64,000 bases of DNA, from assembly GCF_041434935.1 (NCBI RefSeq), contig NZ_CP107964.1, positions 2,356,001 through 2,420,000 of the forward strand, in the 5' to 3' direction. Within the stretch, counting starts at the first letter, position 1; the number at the start of each line of letters is the position of its first letter. The DNA is from Kitasatospora sp. NBC_00374. Its GTDB lineage: Bacteria > Actinomycetota > Actinomycetes > Streptomycetales > Streptomycetaceae. This document shows positions 49,885-57,979 of the stretch, one piece after another. The notes under the pieces were generated by a model. That model had not been told where the DNA came from. It searched no databases and worked only from the letters and a program-made list of their open reading frames with translations. Made by a program: the position numbers and the translations under genes.

Positions 49885-50046
49885 CCCGTCCTCCTCCGCT
49901 CCCGGTCGGTCGCCCACCCTACGCGGCCCCGGTCGCGTGCCCCGACCCGCTCTGGCAGCATCCGCAGGGCGGGAGCCCCGGCCGCCGTCCGGGCCCCGGC
50001 GTACCGTGGTCGCGGACGGGCACGCGAGCATCCTGGGGGTCGGGCG

Positions 50047-50502
50047 ATGGGACGGGCGGCGCAGGGGCGCGGACCGGTGGCGCAGGGGCGGTACCGGCTG
50101 CGGAACGTCGGGAGCGGGCTGCTGCTGGAGGTCGCCGGGGGCAGTACCCGGCACGGGGCCAAGGTCCGGCACGGGCGCGACGACGACAGTGCGGCCCAGG
50201 TGTGGCGGGTGTCGGCCGTGCACGAGGGGGCGGGCCTGTACCACCTGGAGAACGCCGCCAGCGGCAAGCGGCTCGACGTGACGGGTGCCCGTACCGACGA
50301 CGGGGTGCCGCTGCAGCAGTGGTCGGCGAACGCGTTCGGTGCCCAGGAGTGGCTGTTCGAGCGGCATGTGGACGCGCCCGGCACCTTCACCGTGACGGCG
50401 TTCGTGAGCGGCAAGGTGATGGAGGCTGCGGACGACGGCACGGTCCGGCAGTGGGAGGACACCGACACCCCGGCGCAGTGGTGGCGCCTGGAGCAGGCCT
50501 GA
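50047..50502 (+). CDS. Ricin-type beta-trefoil lectin-domain protein, no signal peptide
   Basis: A 151-residue protein consisting of one RICIN/beta-trefoil domain. The three QxW motifs are QVW, QEW and QWW, each ending a subdomain that begins YRLRNVGSGLLLEV, YHLENAASGKRLDV and FTVTAFVSGKVMEA. Beta-trefoils of this kind bind sugars. Unlike most streptomycete RICIN domains it is not attached to a secreted enzyme and has no signal peptide, so it is presumably cytoplasmic or released otherwise. GGGGGTCGGG precedes the ATG. Confidence 0.85.
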   Translation: MGRAAQGRGPVAQGRYRLRNVGSGLLLEVAGGSTRHGAKVRHGRDDDSAAQVWRVSAVHEGAGLYHLENAASGKRLDVTGARTDDGVPLQQWSANAFGAQEWLFERHVDAPGTFTVTAFVSGKVMEAADDGTVRQWEDTDTPAQWWRLEQA

Positions 50503-50535
50503 GAGCGGGCGGACACCGCCGCCCGGTACGCCGAA

Positions 50536-50566
50536 GGGCGCCGGACCGGGTCACGGTCGGGCGCCC
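50536..50566. terminator. Bidirectional terminator between lectin and helicase genes
   Basis: A 13-bp stem with one mismatch (50536-50548 / 50554-50566) and 5-base loop GGTCA in the gap between the convergent genes. Confidence 0.75.
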
Positions 50567-50584
50567 CACAGGCGTGCGGACGGG

Positions 50585-52228
50585 TCAGTCGGACTTGCGG
50601 CGCTGGCGGCCGGTGCCGTAGTTGGAGCCGCTCTTGGTGCCCGAGCCGGGCTGGGCCCGGCCCGAGGTCTTGCCGATGAACCCGGCGGCCTGCCTGCTGC
50701 CGCCGGCCGCCGCGCGGGTGCCGCCGGTCGCCGCGCCGAGGCGCTGCTTGGGGCGCGGCCGGCGGGGGTTGCCGTTGAGGTCGACGTCCTTGGGGAGCGC
50801 GGACCGCTTGGACTGCGGACGGCGGCGGGGCTGGCCGTCGGCGCCGCTCTCGGCCTTGGCCGCGGCCTGGGCCGCCTGCGCCACCTGGGCGGGGGCGAGC
50901 AGCGGCAGGACCGCGACGCCGCTGGGGGTGCGGGCGCCGGTGATCCGGTTCAGCTCGCCGTCGCCGGGGCGGACCTTGGTGACGGTCGGCCGGATGCCGG
51001 CGGTGGTCATCAGCCGCGAGACCTCGCGGCGCTGCTCGGGCAGGACGAGGGTGACCACGGTGCCGGACTCGCCGGCCCGGGCGGTGCGGCCGCCGCGGTG
51101 CAGGTAGTCCTTGTGGTCGATCGGCGGGTCGACGTTGACGACCAGGTCGAGGCCGTCGATGTGGATGCCGCGGGCCGCGACGTTGGTCGCGATGAGCGCG
51201 CTGACCTGGCCTTCACGGAACTGGTCCAGGGTGCGGTTGCGCTGCGGCTGGGACTTGCCGCCGTGCAGCGCGGCGGCCTGCACACCGGCGGCGCGCAGCT
51301 GCTTGGCGAGCCGGTCGGCGCCGTGCTTGGTGTGCACGAACATGATCACGCGGCCGTCGCGGGCGGCGATCCGGGCGGTCGCCTCGGCCTTGTCGGCCGG
51401 CTCCAGCTGGATGACGTGGTGGTCCATGGTGGTGACGGCGCCGGCCGACGGGTCCACCGAGTGGGTCACCGGGTCGGTCAGGAAGCGGGTCACCAGGCGG
51501 TCGACGTTACGGTCGAGGGTGGCGGAGAAGAGCATCCGCTGCCCGCCGGGGGCGACCTGCTCCAGCAGCTTGGCGACCTGGGGCAGGAAGCCCATGTCGG
51601 CCATCTGGTCGGCCTCGTCCAGCACGGTGATCTTCACGTGGTCGAGCCGGACGTCACCGCGGTTGATCAGGTCGTCCAGTCGGCCGGGGGTGGCGACCAG
51701 GACCTCGGTGCCGCGGCGCACCTGGTTGGACTGGCGGGTGATCGACATGCCGCCGACCACGGTGGTGATCCGCAGGTTGAGGCCGATCGCGTACGGGCTC
51801 AGCGCCTCGGTGACCTGCTGGGCCAGCTCGCGGGTGGGCACCAGGACCAGGGCCAGCGGGTAGCGGGAGTCGGCGCGCTGGCCGGCCGTGCGGGCCAGCA
51901 GCGGCAGGCCGAAGGCCAGCGTCTTGCCGGAGCCGGTACGGCCGCGGCCGAGCACGTCGCGTCCGGCGAGGGCGTCCGGCAGGGTGGCGGCCTGGATCGG
52001 GAAGGGCTCGGTGACGCCTTCCCGGCCGAGCGCGGTGAGCAGCGCCTTCGGCATGTCCAGCTCGGCGAAGCTCGCCGCCGGCGGACGCGCCGGGGTGCCC
52101 TGGACGACGGTGAACTCCTCGGCCGGGCGCGGGGCCGCGGTGCGCGGGCGGGCGGAGGCGCCGGCGCTCTTGCGCGGCGGGCGGCCGCCGCCGGTGCGGG
52201 TGCGCTGGGTGCGTGCGGGGTCGGTCAT
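50585..52228 (-). CDS. DEAD-box ATP-dependent RNA helicase
   Basis: A 547-residue helicase. Residues about 1-60 are a basic tail; then the Q motif region (FAELDMPKALLTALGREGVTEPFPIQAATLP), motif I GRTGSGKT, Ia VPTRELAQQ, Ib TPGR, II DEAD (ITVLDEADQM), III SAT, then motif V/VI TNVAARGIHIDG and HRGGRTARAGE. A disordered Arg/Gly-rich tail of about 120 residues probably binds RNA. The ATG 52228 has GGAG upstream; the frame extends to 52582. It follows the cold-shock gene on the same strand after a terminator; the pair fits a role in unwinding structured RNA in the cold. Confidence 0.92.
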   Translation of the reverse strand: MTDPARTQRTRTGGGRPPRKSAGASARPRTAAPRPAEEFTVVQGTPARPPAASFAELDMPKALLTALGREGVTEPFPIQAATLPDALAGRDVLGRGRTGSGKTLAFGLPLLARTAGQRADSRYPLALVLVPTRELAQQVTEALSPYAIGLNLRITTVVGGMSITRQSNQVRRGTEVLVATPGRLDDLINRGDVRLDHVKITVLDEADQMADMGFLPQVAKLLEQVAPGGQRMLFSATLDRNVDRLVTRFLTDPVTHSVDPSAGAVTTMDHHVIQLEPADKAEATARIAARDGRVIMFVHTKHGADRLAKQLRAAGVQAAALHGGKSQPQRNRTLDQFREGQVSALIATNVAARGIHIDGLDLVVNVDPPIDHKDYLHRGGRTARAGESGTVVTLVLPEQRREVSRLMTTAGIRPTVTKVRPGDGELNRITGARTPSGVAVLPLLAPAQVAQAAQAAAKAESGADGQPRRRPQSKRSALPKDVDLNGNPRRPRPKQRLGAATGGTRAAAGGSRQAAGFIGKTSGRAQPGSGTKSGSNYGTGRQRRKSD

Positions 52229-52373
52229 GGTGCTCCAAATCCTGCTCGGCCGACCGCTGCGGGTTGGTGCCGCGGGCGGTGGGACCTTGGGGGCAACCCC
52301 CGGCCGGTGGGCTGGGGGAAGGTCGGCCGTTACAGGAGTGGGAGTGCGCCGCCCCGGCCGTTCGGCGGCATGG

Positions 52374-52407
52374 GCGAGGGCCCGCACCCTGCGGTACGGG
52401 CCCTCGC
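52374..52407 (-). terminator. Terminator downstream of the cold-shock gene
   Basis: A perfect 11-bp stem GCGAGGGCCCG / CGGGCCCTCGC with 12-base loop, 33 bp after the cold-shock stop on the minus strand and before the helicase gene. It may be leaky and let some transcription reach the helicase. Confidence 0.75.
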
Positions 52408-52439
52408 GCAGCACTTTTGAGTCGGCTGGAAGCCGGGTC

Positions 52440-52643
52440 TCAGATGGTGCGGATGTTCTCGGCCTGCGGGCCCTTCTGGCCCTGCGTGACGTCGAACTCG
52501 ACCTGCTGGCCCTCGATGAGCTCGCGGAAGCCGTTGGACTGGATGTTCGAGTAGTGGGCGAACACGTCAGCGCCGCCACCATCCTGCTCGATGAAGCCGA
52601 AGCCCTTTTCGCTGTTGAACCACTTCACGGTGCCGGTAGCCAT
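52440..52643 (-). CDS. Cold-shock protein (CspA family)
   Basis: A 67-residue OB-fold nucleic-acid chaperone. RNP1 is KGFGFIEQ and RNP2 is [16 protein letters not shown] near the N-terminus is diagnostic. The ATG at 52643 has GGAGACGG seven bases upstream; an in-frame GTG/ATG a few codons earlier is less likely. The 5' leader (52644 to about 52830) contains a striking hairpin and U-rich tract (52742-52771), suggesting post-transcriptional control as in other cold-shock genes. Confidence 0.95.
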
Positions 52644-52741
52644 AACCGTCTCCATATTTCACTGGGGCGTCAGGGTCCACACCTCGTGAACCCCAAGTAG
52701 CCGCGATCCCCATCCGGAGACAAAACACCGGACAAAACAAA

Positions 52742-52771
52742 TGCGCCTGTTGGTTGATACCAGCAGGCGCA
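52742..52771 (-). promoter_or_regulatory. Hairpin plus U-rich tract in the cold-shock 5' leader
   Basis: On the minus strand TGCGCCTG pairs with CAGGCGCA (8 bp), then after a 1x1 mismatch TGG with CCA, around the loop TATCAA. It is followed directly by TTTGTTTTGTCC, a U-tract rare in this genome. It is a terminator-like attenuator or structured thermosensor candidate about 100 bases before the csp start. Confidence 0.6.
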
Positions 52772-52877
52772 CACACACGTTCATGGGAACCAATACTGCA
52801 ACTGCCTCGACTGTAGCACGGCCGATCGGTGTGGTGATCGGAAAGTTCCCCTGGTCACACCACGTTTGGCCGACGCA

Positions 52878-52916
52878 GCGAGGGGGCACGCGGATCAGCT
52901 CCGCACGCCCCCTCGC
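52878..52916 (-). terminator. Terminator downstream of the first MMPL gene
   Basis: GCGAGGGGGC...GCCCCCTCGC, a stem of about 17 bp with two mismatches and a 5-base loop, 34 bp after the MMPL stop on the minus strand. Confidence 0.7.
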
Positions 52917-52949
52917 CTTCAAGCAGTGAACGCGGTGAACGCCGTGGGC

Positions 52950-55250
52950 TCAGCGCCGGCCGGCGGGCTCCAGCTCGTCGGCGGCCACCGGGGTGTCCCC
53001 GGCGTGGCCGGGGATCCGGGAGTGACCGGGCCACCAGGCCGCGCGGCCGAGCAGCGCGGTGAGGGCCGGGGTGAAGAACATCGCCATCACGAAGGCCGAG
53101 ACGGCGATGCCGAAGGCCACCGAGAAGCCGATCTGGCTGAACAGCGAGTTGCCGGCCAGCAGCATGGTGGCGAAGGTCAGGGCCAGGATGCTGCCCGCCG
53201 CCGCGACCGTGGGGCCGCCGTGGCGCATGGCCAGTCCGGCCGCCTTGCGCGGGCTGTGGCCCTCGGCCGCCTCCTCGCGCAGGCGGGCGATCATCAGGAT
53301 GTTGTAGTCGGTGCCGATCGCCACCACGAACAGGTAGATGAACATCGGCAGCATGAACATCAGGCCGGGCTCACCCTGGAACCGCTGGAAGACCAGGCTG
53401 GTGGCGCCGACGGTGGCACCGAAGCCGAGGCCGACCGCCGCCATCAGGTACCAGGGGGCGACGATGCTGCGCAGCAGCAGCGCCAGGATCAGCATGATGA
53501 GCAGTGCGGCGACCGGGAAGACCAGCGAGTAGTCGCGGGCCATCGCGGTGTTGATGTCCTTGTACACCGAGGTGATACCGCCGACGTAGGCCTCGGTGCC
53601 CTGCGGGGCGGAGCCGTGCGCGACCTTGCGCAGGCCGTCGATGGTGTCGATGGCCCGGTTCGTCGCCGGGGCGTCCTTGAGCATCACGGTGATGTCGGCG
53701 GTGGCGCCGTCCTGGCTCAGGTGGGGCTGCGGCACGACCTGGGCCACGCCGGGGACCTTGCCGAGCTCCGCGACGTACCCGGTCAGCGCGGAGGCGTCGA
53801 GCTTGGCGCCCTCCTTGGTGCTGGTCAGGTAGATGTGGCTGGGGTCGGCGGCGCCGGCCGAGAAGGCCGTCATCAGGGTGTCCTGGACGACCATCGACTC
53901 CTTGGTCTTCGGCATCGAGCCGGAGGCCAGGTCGAAGGTGCCCTTGTAGCCGAAGGCGGCGAAGGAGAGCACCACCAGCATCGCGCCGGAGACCAGGGTG
54001 ACCAGCAGCGGGCGGCGCTCGACGGTCCGGCCGAGCGCGGCGAAGCGGGCGTTCTCGGGCTCGATCCGCCAGGCCTCGGGGAAGTTGCAGCGGGGGCGCG
54101 AGCGCAGCGTGGGCAGGAAGGTCCCGACCGCACCGGGCGCGGCCCAGGGCTTGGTCCGCGGGAGCAACACGAGCCACTTCAGGTGGCGCCAGTCCCAGCG
54201 GAACCACTGGACCATGCGGCGGAACAGCACCCGCTCGGGGATCACCGAGAGCACGGCGGGCACCAGGGTGACGGAGGCGAGCGCGGTGACCGCGACGGCG
54301 ATCGCCAGCGAGGGGCCGAGCGCCTTGAACATGCCGAGGCTGGACAGCAGCAGGACGCTGAAGGCCACGATGACCGCGCCGGCCGCCGAGGAGATGGCTT
54401 CGCCGACCCGGCCGACGGCGTTGACCACAGCCGTCTTACGGTCCTCGCCGGCCCGCATCCGCTCGCGGTAGCGGAACATCAGGAAGAGGAAGTAGTCCGT
54501 CCCGACACCGAACAGCACGATGATCAGGATGGCCGACACCGAGCTGTCGGCCTTGAGCCCGAAGGCCTTGCTGGCGTCGGCGATCAGGCCGTTGGCGACC
54601 ATCGAGTAGACGAAGATCGACACGATCGGCAGCAGCGCGATGATCGGGCTGCGGAAGATCAGCCAGAGCGTGAGCAGGATGATCACGATCGTGCCGATGC
54701 CGATCAGGGCGTTGGCCAGTTCCGAGGAGTCCTTCTGGTCCAGGTTCTGTGCGGCCTGACCGCCCAGCTGCACCTTGAGGTTGGTGCCCTCGGCCAGCTT
54801 CTTGGCCTCGTCGCGCAGCTCCTTGGCCGAGTCGGCGGCCTCGGGCTTGTGCGCCGAGTTCTTCTCCATGCCGACCATGGACAGCGCGTAGCGGCCGTCC
54901 TTGGAGGTGGACTGCTCACTCACCGGCAGAATGGTCTCGACCATCTTGACGTGCTTGTCGGTGAGGCCCTGGACGACCTTGCCCATGGCCGCCGTGTCGG
55001 CGCCGTCCAGCTTGCCGCCGTCGGTCCGCTCGAAGAGCACCATCGCGGCCGGGGTGAAGTTGGCCGGGAAGGCCTTCTCCTGCACCTGCGCGGCCTGGAT
55101 GGACTCGTAGTGCTTGGGCAGGAACGCGCTCTCGTCGGTCTGCGCGGTCAGCGTCGGGGCGGTGGCGATGATCGCGACAGCGGCGACCAGCCAGCCGACG
55201 ATCACCCACCAGGCCCGCCTGACGACGAAGTGTCCTATTCGGTGGAACAT
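52950..55250 (-). CDS. MMPL/RND-family transporter 1
   Basis: A 766-residue RND-type transporter with twelve predicted helices in two halves (TM1, about 130-residue exoplasmic loop, TM2-6, then TM7, loop, TM8-12). Typical segments are VRRAWWVIVGWLVAAVAIIATAP at the start, FGVGTDYFLFLMFRYRERM (proton-relay Asp) and AIGTDYNILMIARLREE in the second half. Members export lipids, siderophores or drugs. It is divergent from a second MMPL gene; a palindromic TetR-type operator covers its promoter (TAGGAT, 55376-55381 read on minus), so a distant TetR repressor probably controls it. Confidence 0.9.
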   Translation of the reverse strand: MFHRIGHFVVRRAWWVIVGWLVAAVAIIATAPTLTAQTDESAFLPKHYESIQAAQVQEKAFPANFTPAAMVLFERTDGGKLDGADTAAMGKVVQGLTDKHVKMVETILPVSEQSTSKDGRYALSMVGMEKNSAHKPEAADSAKELRDEAKKLAEGTNLKVQLGGQAAQNLDQKDSSELANALIGIGTIVIILLTLWLIFRSPIIALLPIVSIFVYSMVANGLIADASKAFGLKADSSVSAILIIVLFGVGTDYFLFLMFRYRERMRAGEDRKTAVVNAVGRVGEAISSAAGAVIVAFSVLLLSSLGMFKALGPSLAIAVAVTALASVTLVPAVLSVIPERVLFRRMVQWFRWDWRHLKWLVLLPRTKPWAAPGAVGTFLPTLRSRPRCNFPEAWRIEPENARFAALGRTVERRPLLVTLVSGAMLVVLSFAAFGYKGTFDLASGSMPKTKESMVVQDTLMTAFSAGAADPSHIYLTSTKEGAKLDASALTGYVAELGKVPGVAQVVPQPHLSQDGATADITVMLKDAPATNRAIDTIDGLRKVAHGSAPQGTEAYVGGITSVYKDINTAMARDYSLVFPVAALLIMLILALLLRSIVAPWYLMAAVGLGFGATVGATSLVFQRFQGEPGLMFMLPMFIYLFVVAIGTDYNILMIARLREEAAEGHSPRKAAGLAMRHGGPTVAAAGSILALTFATMLLAGNSLFSQIGFSVAFGIAVSAFVMAMFFTPALTALLGRAAWWPGHSRIPGHAGDTPVAADELEPAGRR

Positions 55251-55750
55251 GCTCGTAGTGCCTCCTGGGCATGGTTCACCGCAGCCCTGGGGGGACGGGA
55301 CGCCGGGCGACGGCAGGACCGGGCGGCGAGCGGCAGCGCCTGCTCTTAGCCGGTCGGCAGGTAAGTACGGTCAGCATCCTACGGGAATTTACTTGCCGCC
55401 CGGCAAGTGGATTTCCCGCGGACCGCCCCCTAGGGGTGGCCCCGTGCCGCCCCCGGACCATCCTGACCTGCGGACGGCACCCGACACCTCGTGCTCCGGG
55501 TGGAGACGCCTCCCCCTCAGGGTGGACTCCGGTCCTCCCCGTCAAGGAGGAGATCTCGGGGGCCCGAGTAGGGGAAACCCCACCCCCGGGGTGAGGGAAG
55601 GCCCAGGGAAGACTCCCCCGCCAGCCCGATGTTGCGTCAGGCCGCGTTTTCCTAGCCTTCCTCATGCAGCTTCCACAGCGCGCCGGACCGCAGCCGGCGA
55701 CCGCTTCCGGCGGCATCCGGCCGCCGCACTCCCTGGGGGGACGAACACCC
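55251..55750. promoter_or_regulatory. Divergent MMPL intergenic region
   Basis: A 500-bp region with no credible gene. Left part: MMPL1 promoter and operator palindromes (55351-55408). Middle (55420-55620): GC-rich, nothing recognised. Right end: TTGCGT (55632-55637) and TAGCCT (55653-55658), a likely rightward promoter for MMPL2 with a short 15-bp spacer. Confidence 0.55.
55391..55408. promoter_or_regulatory. TetR-type operator palindrome
   Basis: ACTTGCCG-CC-CGGCAAGT, 8-bp perfect arms, overlapping the -35/spacer of the leftward promoter. A related half site CGGCAGGT-AAGTAC (55355-55367) lies downstream of the -10. Two sites bracketing a promoter fit repression by a TetR-family protein. 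Confidence 0.7.
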
Positions 55751-57979
55751 GTGAAACCTGGACTCGCCGCGACGATGGGCGCCTGGAGCGCCCGGCACAG
55801 AAAGACGGCCGTCTTCGGCTGGCTGCTGTTCGTGGTGCTCGCCGCCTACCTCGGCGGCGTGCACGGCAGCACCAAGGTCGAGCAGTCGGAGTCGATGCCC
55901 GGCCAGGTGGCCCGGGCCGCCAAGATCCTCGACGAGGCCGGGATCAAGCGCCCGGCGGGCGAGACCGTCCTGGTCCAGAGCTCCGCCCTGACCGCCGACG
56001 ACCCGGCCTTCCGGCGCGTGGTGGACGAGGTCGCGGGCGCCGTCACCGGCACCGGCAGGACCGCCGACCTGCACAGCCCGTACGACAGCGGGGCGATATC
56101 GGCCGACCGGCACTCCGCCCTGCTGCAGTTCACCCTGGCGGGCCAGGACGAGAAGGCGGTGGAGGACGTCCCCGCCGTGCTGGCCGCCGTCGGCAAGGTC
56201 CAGGCGGCCCACCGGGACCTCACCGTCGAGGAGTTCGGCGAGGCCAGCGCCGGGAAGTGGTTCCAGGACCAGTTCAAGAACGACTTCAGCCGCGCCGAGT
56301 GGACGGCCGTCCCGCTCGCGCTGGGCATCCTGCTGATCGCCTTCGGCGCGCTGGTGGCCGCCGTCCTGCCGGTGCTGCTCGCCCTCACCGCGTTCATCGC
56401 GGCCGGCGGCCTGGTCGCGCTGAGCAGCGGACTGCTGCACACCAGCGACGACGCCAGCTCGGTGATGCTGCTGGTCGGCCTCGCGGTCGGGGTCGACTAC
56501 TGCCTCTTCTACCTGCGCCGCGAGCGCGAGGAGCGGGCCGCCGGACGGGACGCCGCGACCGCCCTGCAGATCGCCGCCGCCACCTCGGGCCGGGCCGTCC
56601 TGGTCTCCGGTGTCACCGTCGTGGTCGCGATGGCCGGCATGTTCCTCACCGGCATCGCCGACTTCCAGGCCATGTCACTGGCCACCATCATCGTGGTGGT
56701 CACCGCCGTCCTCGGTTCGCTGACCGTCCTGCCCGCGCTGCTCTCCATGCTCGGCGACCGGGTGGACAAGGGCCGGGTGCCGTTCCTGCACCGGCTCCGC
56801 CGGAGCGACGCCGCCGGCGGCCGGGTCTGGAACGCCGTGCTCACCCCGGTGCTGCGCCGCCCGCTGGCCGCGACCGTCCTGGCCGGCGGCCTGCTGCTGG
56901 GCCTGGCCGCCCCGATGCTCACCATGCACACCGCCAACCTGACCTTCCAGCAGCAACTGCCCAAGGGCAACGCGCTGGTGGCCACCTCGGCCCGGATCGA
57001 GGCGGCCTTCCCCGGCAGCCCGTCACCGGCCACCGTCGTGGTCAAGGCCAGGGACATCGACTCCCCGGAGATGACCAGGGCGATCGCCGACTTCCAGGCC
57101 AGGGCGCTCACCACCAAGGGCATGCACGGCCCGATCCAGGTCACCGTCCACCAGGCGCAGAACGTCGCCACCATCGACGTCCCCCTGCTCGGCAGCGGCA
57201 ACGACGCCACCAGCAACGACGCCCTCGACGCGCTGCGCGGCACGGTGGTCGCCGACACCCTGCTCAAGGTGCCCGGCACCGAGGCCCCGGTGACCGGCCA
57301 GACCGCGGGCTCGCACGACTTCAACCGGCAGATGTCGGACTCGATGCTCCCGGTCTTCGGCTTCGTGGTGGCCTTCGCCTTCCTGCTGATGCTCACCTCC
57401 TTCCGCTCCCTGGGCATCGCCGTCACCGCCGTGGTGCTCAACCTGCTGTCGGTCGGCGCGGCGTACGGGGTGCTGTCGCTGGTCTTCCAGCACGGCGTCG
57501 GGGCGTCCCTGCTCGGTACCGCCGGGGTGGGCGCGGTGGAGTCCTGGGTGCCGCTCTTCCTCTTCGTGATCCTCTTCGGGCTGAGCATGGACTACCACGT
57601 GTTCGTGGTCTCCCGGATCAAGGAGGCGCACGACCGCGGCCTGTCCACCCAGGCCGCCATCTCGTACGGCATCCGCAGCACGGCCGGCGTGGTGACCAGC
57701 GCGGCCGTGATCATGGTCGGCGTGTTCGCGGTGTTCGGCACCCTGTCGATGCAGTCGATGAAGCAGATGGGCGTCGGCCTCGCGGTGGCGGTGCTGATCG
57801 ACGCCACCGTGATCCGGGCGGTCCTGCTGCCCGCCGCGATGAGCCTGCTGGGCGAGCGCAACTGGTACCTGCCGAACTGGCTGTCCTGGCTGCCGAAGCT
57901 CGAACACGGCGAGCCCACGCCGCCGGCCGCCGCGGCCCCGGCCCGGCACGCCGCCGAGCGCGAGCCCGCCGCGCACTGA
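55751..57979 (+). CDS. MMPL/RND-family transporter 2
   Basis: A 742-residue paralogue with the same twelve-helix layout. TM1 (TAVFGWLLFVVLAAYLGG) is followed by an exoplasmic loop, then VGLAVGVDYCLFYLRREREE and, in the second half, ILFGLSMDYHVFVVSRIKE, each with the conserved membrane Asp. The GTG at 55751 has a GGGGGGA sequence upstream and gives the usual family N-terminus. An in-frame ATG at 55664 directly follows a TAGCCT hexamer and would add 29 residues by leaderless translation. It is only distantly similar to the divergent MMPL, so substrates may differ. Confidence 0.9.
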   Translation: MKPGLAATMGAWSARHRKTAVFGWLLFVVLAAYLGGVHGSTKVEQSESMPGQVARAAKILDEAGIKRPAGETVLVQSSALTADDPAFRRVVDEVAGAVTGTGRTADLHSPYDSGAISADRHSALLQFTLAGQDEKAVEDVPAVLAAVGKVQAAHRDLTVEEFGEASAGKWFQDQFKNDFSRAEWTAVPLALGILLIAFGALVAAVLPVLLALTAFIAAGGLVALSSGLLHTSDDASSVMLLVGLAVGVDYCLFYLRREREERAAGRDAATALQIAAATSGRAVLVSGVTVVVAMAGMFLTGIADFQAMSLATIIVVVTAVLGSLTVLPALLSMLGDRVDKGRVPFLHRLRRSDAAGGRVWNAVLTPVLRRPLAATVLAGGLLLGLAAPMLTMHTANLTFQQQLPKGNALVATSARIEAAFPGSPSPATVVVKARDIDSPEMTRAIADFQARALTTKGMHGPIQVTVHQAQNVATIDVPLLGSGNDATSNDALDALRGTVVADTLLKVPGTEAPVTGQTAGSHDFNRQMSDSMLPVFGFVVAFAFLLMLTSFRSLGIAVTAVVLNLLSVGAAYGVLSLVFQHGVGASLLGTAGVGAVESWVPLFLFVILFGLSMDYHVFVVSRIKEAHDRGLSTQAAISYGIRSTAGVVTSAAVIMVGVFAVFGTLSMQSMKQMGVGLAVAVLIDATVIRAVLLPAAMSLLGERNWYLPNWLSWLPKLEHGEPTPPAAAAPARHAAEREPAAH

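What the first reader, a model, noticed from the sequence alone, without database searches (positions are those of the whole stretch)
52644..52830. Structured cold-shock 5' leader with terminator-like hairpin
A perfect-looking hairpin followed by TTTGTTTTG in a very GC-rich genome sits about 100 bases before the csp start, separate from the MMPL terminator further upstream. It could be an attenuator relieved in the cold or by the Csp protein itself, or a thermosensor. A 41-codon frame also runs through it from an ATG just before the hairpin.
Basis: partly seen in the sequence, partly recalled or inferred. Interest (0 to 1): 0.55.

Follow-up and report, generated by a model that had tools for sequence, protein, structure and literature searches.

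The report
Actinobacterial cold-shock gene leader RNA
The stretch before this cold-shock gene is a conserved regulatory RNA with a fixed 5' end and a built-in stop-signal-like hairpin, seen before cold-shock genes in many Actinomycetes, and we found no earlier description of it.

Summary
On the minus strand a hairpin (52771-52742) with tail TTTGTTTTG lies 98 nt before a cold-shock gene (52643-52440). It belongs to a leader RNA: extended -10 promoter, a near-invariant motif AGTTGCAGTATTGGTTCCCATGAAC at the predicted 5' end, terminator-like hairpin H1, hairpins H2 and H3, then csp, often followed by a DEAD-box helicase gene. Covariance models match 61 of 61 genomes of the window's genus (probably Kitasatospora), 167 of 197 of the order and 110 of 345 of the class. 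H1 changes sequence between lineages but keeps pairing and U-rich tail (8 of 10 pairs covary). Matches sit before csp: 5 of 5 strong ones in the own genome, 42 of 44 fetched R2 matches, 20 of 20 R3 matches. The 41-codon frame is not conserved; H1 is predicted too stable for a thermometer; the motif co-evolves with none of six segments tested, so a base-paired antiterminator is unlikely. Best explanation: a transcription attenuator, with a trans-acting factor, perhaps Csp, reading the motif. Transcript ends and the factor are untested. No Rfam family matches at its cut-off and ten paper searches showed no description. New variant of a known kind.

The parts
52810..52818 (-). extended -10 promoter TGCTACAGT (predicted +1 = 52803)
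   Evidence: TGnTAnnnT found 5-10 nt before GTTG in 81 of 86 non-redundant leaders; identity among 30 same-genus leaders is 0.26 at -32..-21 and 0.83-0.90 from -20 to +3; start site inferred, not measured
52779..52803 (-). conserved 5'-end motif AGTTGCAGTATTGGTTCCCATGAAC
   Evidence: nearly all positions invariant in 31 leaders, about half invariant in 57 long leaders (leaders in both sets were collected with motif patterns); no pairing co-evolution with six segments tested
52742..52771 (-). H1, terminator-like hairpin
   Evidence: pairs with a change on both sides: 9 of 11, 8 of 10 in the class-wide set
52733..52741 (-). U-rich tail TTTGTTTTG directly after H1
   Evidence: hairpin plus T-rich tail in 64 of 86 leaders, shuffles mean 5.55
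52713..52732 (-). H2, CCGG/CCGG hairpin; its GTCTCC (52721-52716) is complementary to the SD
   Evidence: 4 of 5 pairs with a both-side change in A4 but only 1 of 5 in A5; SD complementarity without significant co-variation
52697..52707 (-). conserved ATCGCGGCTAC, could pair with GTTGC of the 5' motif
   Evidence: pairing kept in 93.7% of cells, 0 of 5 pairs with a both-side change; absent from short-type leaders
52673..52694 (-). H3 hairpin
   Evidence: inner helix 5 of 5 and outer helix 2 of 3 pairs with a both-side change
52648..52653 (-). Shine-Dalgarno GGAGAC
52440..52643 (-). csp gene, 67 aa, cold-shock domain
50585..52228 (-). DEAD-box RNA helicase gene downstream, same strand (start codon chosen by eye); co-transcription with csp not shown
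   Evidence: PF00270 and PF00271; helicase motif within 1.3 kb downstream of the csp start in 129 of 154 distinct leaders, upstream in 1 of 154

Best explanation
It is a csp leader RNA, widespread in the class, that works as a transcription attenuator. Transcription starts about 160 nt before csp, at an extended -10 promoter without a conserved -35. RNA polymerase first makes the motif GUUGCAGU..UGGUWCCC at the very 5' end, then H1. In the default state it stops at the U-rich tail, leaving a short RNA of about 70 nt; in the other state it reads through into csp and perhaps the DEAD-box helicase gene. Because H1 changes freely while the motif does not, and the motif co-evolves with none of the segments tested, the switch is probably not a competing RNA helix but a factor that reads the motif, perhaps with the U-rich tail. 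The most likely candidate is Csp itself as negative feedback: free Csp favours termination, and cold, which ties Csp up on other structured RNAs, allows read-through. SHOWN: the conserved leader, H1 with U-rich tail, covariation, csp specificity, gene order with the helicase. INFERRED: start site, termination at H1, regulated read-through. GUESSED: Csp as the factor and the sign of its effect.
For: Conservation and spread (own genome counted in each): 37 of 37 same-genus genomes by DNA search, 61 of 61 by model R1, 167 of 197 of the order, 110 of 345 of the class by R3, 45 of 127 genera, 33 of the 110 being of the window's own family. Specificity: in the own genome 5 matches at E at most 1.7e-10, all before csp genes, the next at 0.05 (coordinates); 110 of 119 motif places before csp, 8 of the other 9 cut off by the locus end; 42 of 44 fetched R2 matches of 30 bits or more, 6 of the 44 from the own family; 20 of 20 hand-picked R3 matches, one of them used to build R3. 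Terminator character: 64 of 86 leaders, shuffles mean 5.55 and maximum 9 of 86 in 20 rounds; H1 keeps its pairing while its sequence changes. No RNA competitor seen: motif against six leader or CDS segments z -1.9 to +3.1, H1 arms as control z -14; two specific pairings at chance level. Precedent: E. coli CspD binds nascent RNA and weakens intrinsic termination (PMC9765468, passages); B. subtilis CspB/CspD alter read-through at terminators, and a point mutation in or next to a cold shock box of the cspC 5' UTR about doubles reporter activity (PMC8307031, abstract and passages).
Against: No transcript end was measured. The U-tract is interrupted (TTTGTTTTG) and 22 of 86 leaders fail the strict terminator rule; by eye most of these still show a hairpin with a second mismatch, but L316, L329 and L334 do not clearly. 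The simple terminator scan found nothing here. H2, H3 and the SD region are also conserved, which a pure attenuator would not need, and the H2-to-GGGG segment shows a weak hint of pairing with the last 40 nt (z -2.46). The hairpin could equally be a stability or processing structure. The motif could act as DNA. The precedents disagree in sign: CspD weakens termination in E. coli, CspB/CspD mostly support it in B. subtilis. A strong hairpin lies between csp and helicase. 235 of 345 class genomes had no R3 match at E 0.001. GTTG[CT][AG]GT was required in selecting the leaders, so its invariance there is by construction.
Confidence: 0.5

Rival explanations
1. Translation-level regulation, like a thermosensor: the leader folds around the SD and start codon, and temperature or Csp shifts the balance between H2/H3 and SD-blocking pairings. 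H1 is then only a stable spacer or processing hairpin.
For: H2, H3, the AUCGCGGC segment and the SD region are conserved. Predicted AUG openness rises from 0.02 at 10 C to 0.67 at 42 C in the window leader. Six S. coelicolor cold-shock genes are among 74 translationally induced by heat shock; the authors speculate about a thermosensor near +63 of the coding region (PMC6009599, passages). GTCTCC in H2 is complementary to the SD; the H2-to-GGGG segment against the last 40 nt gives z -2.46.
Against: The predicted change runs the wrong way for cold induction. SD-antiSD co-variation is not significant (65 of 86 leaders parsed, permutation fraction 0.07). Short-type leaders lack H3 and the GCGGC segment but keep the 5' motif and H1. 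It does not explain the T-rich tail after H1.
Confidence: 0.25
2. The 5' motif is a DNA site or initially transcribed promoter element (repressor site or escape signal), and the conserved RNA hairpins only protect or process the transcript.
For: The motif begins at about the predicted +1, at a nearly constant distance from the -10, and shows no pairing co-evolution with the leader segments tested.
Against: It occurs joined to H1 with a U-rich tail even where H1 is unrelated in sequence. No candidate DNA-binding regulator was looked for here.
Confidence: 0.15
3. The leader yields a small RNA acting in trans, csp regulation being secondary.
For: A terminated product of about 70 nt would carry the motif and could be made from 5 loci in the own genome. 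Twelve earlier-reported or predicted S. coelicolor sRNAs look like highly expressed 5' UTRs (PMC3765725, passage; csp does not occur in its main text).
Against: Copies stay attached to csp; a trans RNA would more often be free-standing.
Confidence: 0.07
4. Leader-peptide attenuation through the 41-codon frame.
For: The window frame is open through H1.
Against: ATG absent in 40 of 86 leaders, peptides of 2 to 60 codons in the others, SD-like sequence in 2 of 86.
Confidence: 0.02

Closest known systems
Rfam RF01766, cspA thermoregulator (E. coli cspA 5' UTR)
   Same: Long structured 5' leader of a cold-shock gene.
   Different: No match in the window; in 11 of 20 related loci only matches below the cut-off (best 42.9 bits, E 3e-8, against 78), all overlapping the csp reading frame. 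Here a terminator-like hairpin and a 5'-end motif stand at the centre.
Cold shock boxes of B. subtilis cspB/cspC 5' UTRs (RNA feature S179)
   Same: Conserved boxes in csp 5' UTRs; a mutation in or next to a box raises cspC expression (PMC8307031, passages).
   Different: No terminator hairpin in that leader is mentioned in the passages seen; sequences were not compared here.
E. coli cold box of cspA, cspB, cspG and csdA (recalled, from no call)
   Same: A short conserved 5'-leader motif shared by csp genes and, as recalled, a DEAD-box helicase gene.
   Different: Sequence not compared; no terminator hairpin recalled there.
Csp-dependent changes of intrinsic termination (E. coli CspD, CspA/C/E; B. 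subtilis CspB/CspD)
   Same: Csp proteins act at terminators (PMC9765468, passages; PMC8307031, abstract and passages).
   Different: The sites described in the passages seen are not a leader of the csp gene itself.
C. glutamicum cg0215 (cspA) 5' UTR
   Same: Actinobacterial csp 5' UTR seen by RNA-seq and labelled RF01766 (PMC3890552, passages).
   Different: Whether it carries the motif described here was not tested.

Membership tests
Rfam RF01766 cspA thermoregulator | covariance-model score at or above the gathering cut-off (78 bits) | tested here: not met
   none in the window; best of 20 related loci 42.9 bits
Rfam RF01766 cspA thermoregulator | temperature-dependent refolding that changes translation | not testable with these tools
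   only folding predictions at six temperatures for one leader
Intrinsic (Rho-independent) terminator | G+C-rich stem directly followed by a U-rich tract, conserved | tested here: met
   (64 of 86); tract interrupted by G in the window
Intrinsic (Rho-independent) terminator | transcripts end in the U-tract | not testable with these tools
RNA-switch attenuator with antiterminator helix | conserved alternative pairing that competes with the terminator | tested here: not met
   for the partners tested only: no co-evolving partner for the 5' motif among six segments; UUGGUU/AACCAA at chance
Leader-peptide attenuator | conserved short reading frame with ribosome-binding site | tested here: not met
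Protein-dependent attenuator | a protein binds the leader and changes read-through | not testable with these tools
   inferred only from the near-invariant motif
B. subtilis cold shock boxes / E. coli cold box | shared box sequence | not tested
   those sequences were not fetched

The most novel reading that the evidence does not exclude
A class-wide RNA sensor of free RNA-chaperone capacity: the near-invariant 5'-end motif binds Csp co-transcriptionally and sets termination at a freely evolving hairpin, thereby controlling a csp plus DEAD-box helicase unit in Streptomyces, Kitasatospora and many other Actinomycetes.
Probability: 0.25. Interest if true: 0.8.

Novelty: new variant of a known kind. 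Interest (0 to 1): 0.6.

Why it matters
How actinobacteria control their cold-shock proteins is little known as far as my searches showed, although two of them are reported as highly abundant in S. coelicolor without stress (PMC6009599, passage). A leader found across a class, in up to six copies per genome and next to a DEAD-box helicase gene, makes the question directly testable in laboratory Streptomyces: there is a defined 5' motif and hairpin to mutate, and a covariance model for annotation. If Csp is the factor, it would be a simple sensor of RNA-chaperone demand and a candidate temperature-responsive control part for expression hosts.

Tried and rejected
Rejected: the 41-codon frame as a leader peptide. 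H1 as a thermometer. Mini-hairpin GUUC/GAAC in the 5' motif: 82.0% of cells paired, shuffles 81.9%. Pairing of UUGGUU with AACCAA of the H1 loop, which looked like covariation in one paralogue: 60.1% against 61.0%. Pairing of the motif with the csp start region: weaker than permuted, z +3.06. Long-range GUUGC/GCGGC: compatible, 0 of 5 pairs with a both-side change, and short leaders lack the partner. GGGG/CCCC helix before the SD: 57.5% of cells paired, with a weak hint (z -2.46). SD-antiSD pairing: not significant (65 of 86 parsed; a first parse caught only 25 of 86 and was replaced).

Led nowhere: Rfam searches of the window. Ten paper searches, of which I saw the listings, showed no description of this leader; only open-licence papers are held, and one survey of structured RNAs was not held.

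Rows dropped: from 62 long representatives five with insertions (L087, L104, L109, L203, L214) were left out of A4. From 71 representatives nine were not parsed and L093 was left out by hand, giving 61 in A5. A7 (43 rows) is hand-picked: 41 parsed, minus L290, L291, L316, plus L308, L317, L324, L325, L331. In one search, 57 of the 63 matches were used; the other six repeat the same places or their other strand. The places fetched were chosen by hand from listings, not all listed places. In one search, 370 raw leaders became 260 after nested ones were dropped, then 86 representatives below 85% identity.

Full report
WHAT IS THERE. Reading downstream: extended -10 TGCTACAGT (52818-52810), AGTTGCAGTATTGGTTCCCATGAAC (52803-52779), hairpin H1 (52771-52742) with tail TTTGTTTTG (52741-52733), hairpin H2 (52732-52713), ATCGCGGCTAC (52707-52697), hairpin H3 (52694-52673), SD GGAGAC (52653-52648), ATG (52643). 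The stretch 52600-52799 is 55% G+C; the other 100-base windows of 50000-55999 are at 59-86%. H1 has one C.A mismatch.

IS IT MORE THAN CHANCE. Folding energies alone are not convincing (z -2.08, 8 of 200 shuffles; z -1.26, 23 of 200), and the simple scan found no terminator or promoter on this strand. Comparison settles it. A DNA search with the leader in 61 genomes, own included, matched all 37 of the same genus. Among 30 same-genus leaders, mean identity per 12 bases is 0.26 at -32..-21, 0.83-1.00 from -20 to +124, 0.66-0.72 between H3 and the SD, and 0.78-1.00 in the coding sequence; upstream of -32 there are patches between 0.08 and 0.82.

HOW FAR IT REACHES. Three covariance models were built, from 29, 61 and 43 leaders. 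R1 matched 61 of 61 genomes of the genus with 1 to 6 copies and 167 of 197 of the order. R2 matched 89 of 345 of the class, with all 32 other same-family genomes listed there (genus g15, probably Streptomyces) among the matches, and 18 of 198 of the phylum; of the 8 matches from outside the class, all fetched, none showed csp, L297 having only 93 nt to look at. R3 matched 110 of 345 of the class at E 0.001, 33 of them of the window's family.

IT BELONGS TO csp. The models end before the coding sequence, yet matches sit before csp: 110 of 119 motif places, 8 of the other 9 cut by the locus end and one (L168) before a csp that has lost its 5' part; 42 of 44 fetched R2 matches of 30 bits or more, the exceptions being L314, where the frame after MTTGT is no longer csp, and L330; below 30 bits 4 of 13. 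R3 matches picked by hand: 20 of 20, 19 of them not used to build R3. Two R1 matches (L124, L125) stand before another gene, see below, and L119 before a broken csp-like frame. In the own genome the five strong matches all precede csp genes, out of 12 csp-like matches; the sixth match is at E 0.05.

STRUCTURE. On 57 long leaders (A4, a plain MAFFT alignment; the structure was named from the window row) 84.8% of cells pair against 80.8% in column shuffles, and 21 of 33 pairs have a change on both sides against 12.4, with 0 of 500 shuffles as high; sliding the partner by 1 to 3 columns drops pairing to 42-52%. By helix, pairs with a both-side change: H1 9 of 11, H2 4 of 5, H3 inner 5 of 5 and outer 2 of 3; GUUGC/GCGGC 0 of 5; GGGG/CCCC 1 of 4 at 57.5% pairing. 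The core set of 61 gives 10 of 16 pairs (1 of 500 shuffles as high), H1 9 of 11 but H2 only 1 of 5. The class-wide set gives 8 of 10 H1 pairs (3 of 500 shuffles as high) with 88.5% of cells paired against 77.2%. Related sequences inflate such counts, as the tool warns. H1 stems differ widely, for example TGCGCCTG..CAGGCGCA, AAGTGCTCTCGCC..GGTGAGCGCACTT and ACGCCCGCGG..CAGCGGGCGT, followed by T-rich tails.

TERMINATOR CHARACTER. With a fixed rule (7 or more pairs, 5 or more G-C, at most one mismatch, 5 or more T in the next 8), 64 of 86 non-redundant leaders have a hit, and 201 of 260 distinct leaders; in 20 rounds of dinucleotide shuffling of the 86 the mean is 5.55 and the maximum 9. By eye most of the 22 misses have a second mismatch in an otherwise clear hairpin.

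THE 5' MOTIF. It starts about where the -10 predicts +1. It does not co-evolve with any of six leader or CDS segments (z -1.91 to +3.06), while the H1 arms as positive control give z -14.1 and H3 z -5.0; H2, whose arms hardly vary, gives +1.27. Two specific pairings are at chance level. The motif is also kept in short-type leaders (about 115-125 nt), which lack the GCGGC segment and H3. It is therefore probably read by a protein or acts at the promoter. Selection of leaders for required GTTG[CT][AG]GT, so that part is constant by construction; model-found matches show variants such as GTTGTAGT, GTGGCAGT and GTTACAGT.

LINKED HELICASE. Of 154 distinct leaders with enough flank, 129 have a DEAD-box helicase motif within 1.3 kb downstream of the csp start on the same strand, 1 upstream, 0 on the antisense strand; among 37 representatives 22, 0 and 0. 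In the own genome 3 of the 5 leader-bearing csp genes have it. In the window the helicase is at 50585-52228; a strong hairpin lies between it and csp, and co-transcription is not shown. In two genomes (L124, L125, probably Catenulispora) the leader stands directly before a helicase of this kind, with no csp between.

MECHANISM. I commit to transcription attenuation at H1 (about 0.5 for the statement as a whole), with a trans-acting factor reading the motif. Csp as that factor, by negative feedback, is my first guess and untested. Support from elsewhere: CspD of E. coli binds nascent transcripts and weakens termination (PMC9765468, passages); in B. subtilis CspB/CspD alter terminator read-through, mostly favouring termination, and a cspC 5'-UTR mutation about doubles reporter activity (PMC8307031, abstract and passages). 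The signs differ between the two, so the direction here is open. H1 melting is excluded by prediction (-19.5 kcal/mol at 42 C, still folded at 75 C). A translational effect remains the main rival, helped by the report that six S. coelicolor cold-shock genes are translationally induced by heat (PMC6009599, passages); whether those genes carry this leader was not tested.

KNOWN OR NEW. No Rfam family matches the window at its cut-off; RF01766 appears below its cut-off in 11 of 20 related loci, over the csp frame. Ten paper searches (listings seen) and the passages I saw in papers describe no such leader; the closest actinobacterial report labels the C. glutamicum cspA 5' UTR as RF01766. I rate it a new variant of a known kind (csp 5'-leader regulators), not a member of RF01766.

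Noticed in passing
L124:112-811 and L125:119-821 (+ strand): The csp-type leader stands directly before a DEAD-box helicase gene without a csp between, in two genomes of the same order; either csp was lost or the leader was taken over by the helicase.
   Followed up: partly
window 50585-52643 (-): Leader, csp and DEAD-box helicase form a recurrent gene order (129 of 154 distinct leaders), with a strong hairpin without U-tract between csp and helicase.
   Followed up: partly
G000:C1:4869250-4869355 (-), L308: A fifth, diverged copy in the own genome with an unrelated H1 stem (GAGCCTGCGG..CCGCAGGC) and a long T-rich tail, before another csp gene.
   Followed up: yes
L105, L106, L108, L142, L194: Short-type leaders without H3 and the GCGGC segment; several precede csp genes starting MAQGTVKWF, which may mark a csp subfamily.
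   Followed up: no
window 52836-52871 (-), about -68 to -33 of the predicted start: Moderate conservation (64-73% identity) upstream of the unconserved -32..-21 stretch, possibly an upstream promoter element or protein site.
   Followed up: no
L168, minus strand, oriented position 1718: A leader (Kitasatospora phosalacinea) followed by a csp that has lost its 5' part, with the helicase frame still downstream.
   Followed up: no
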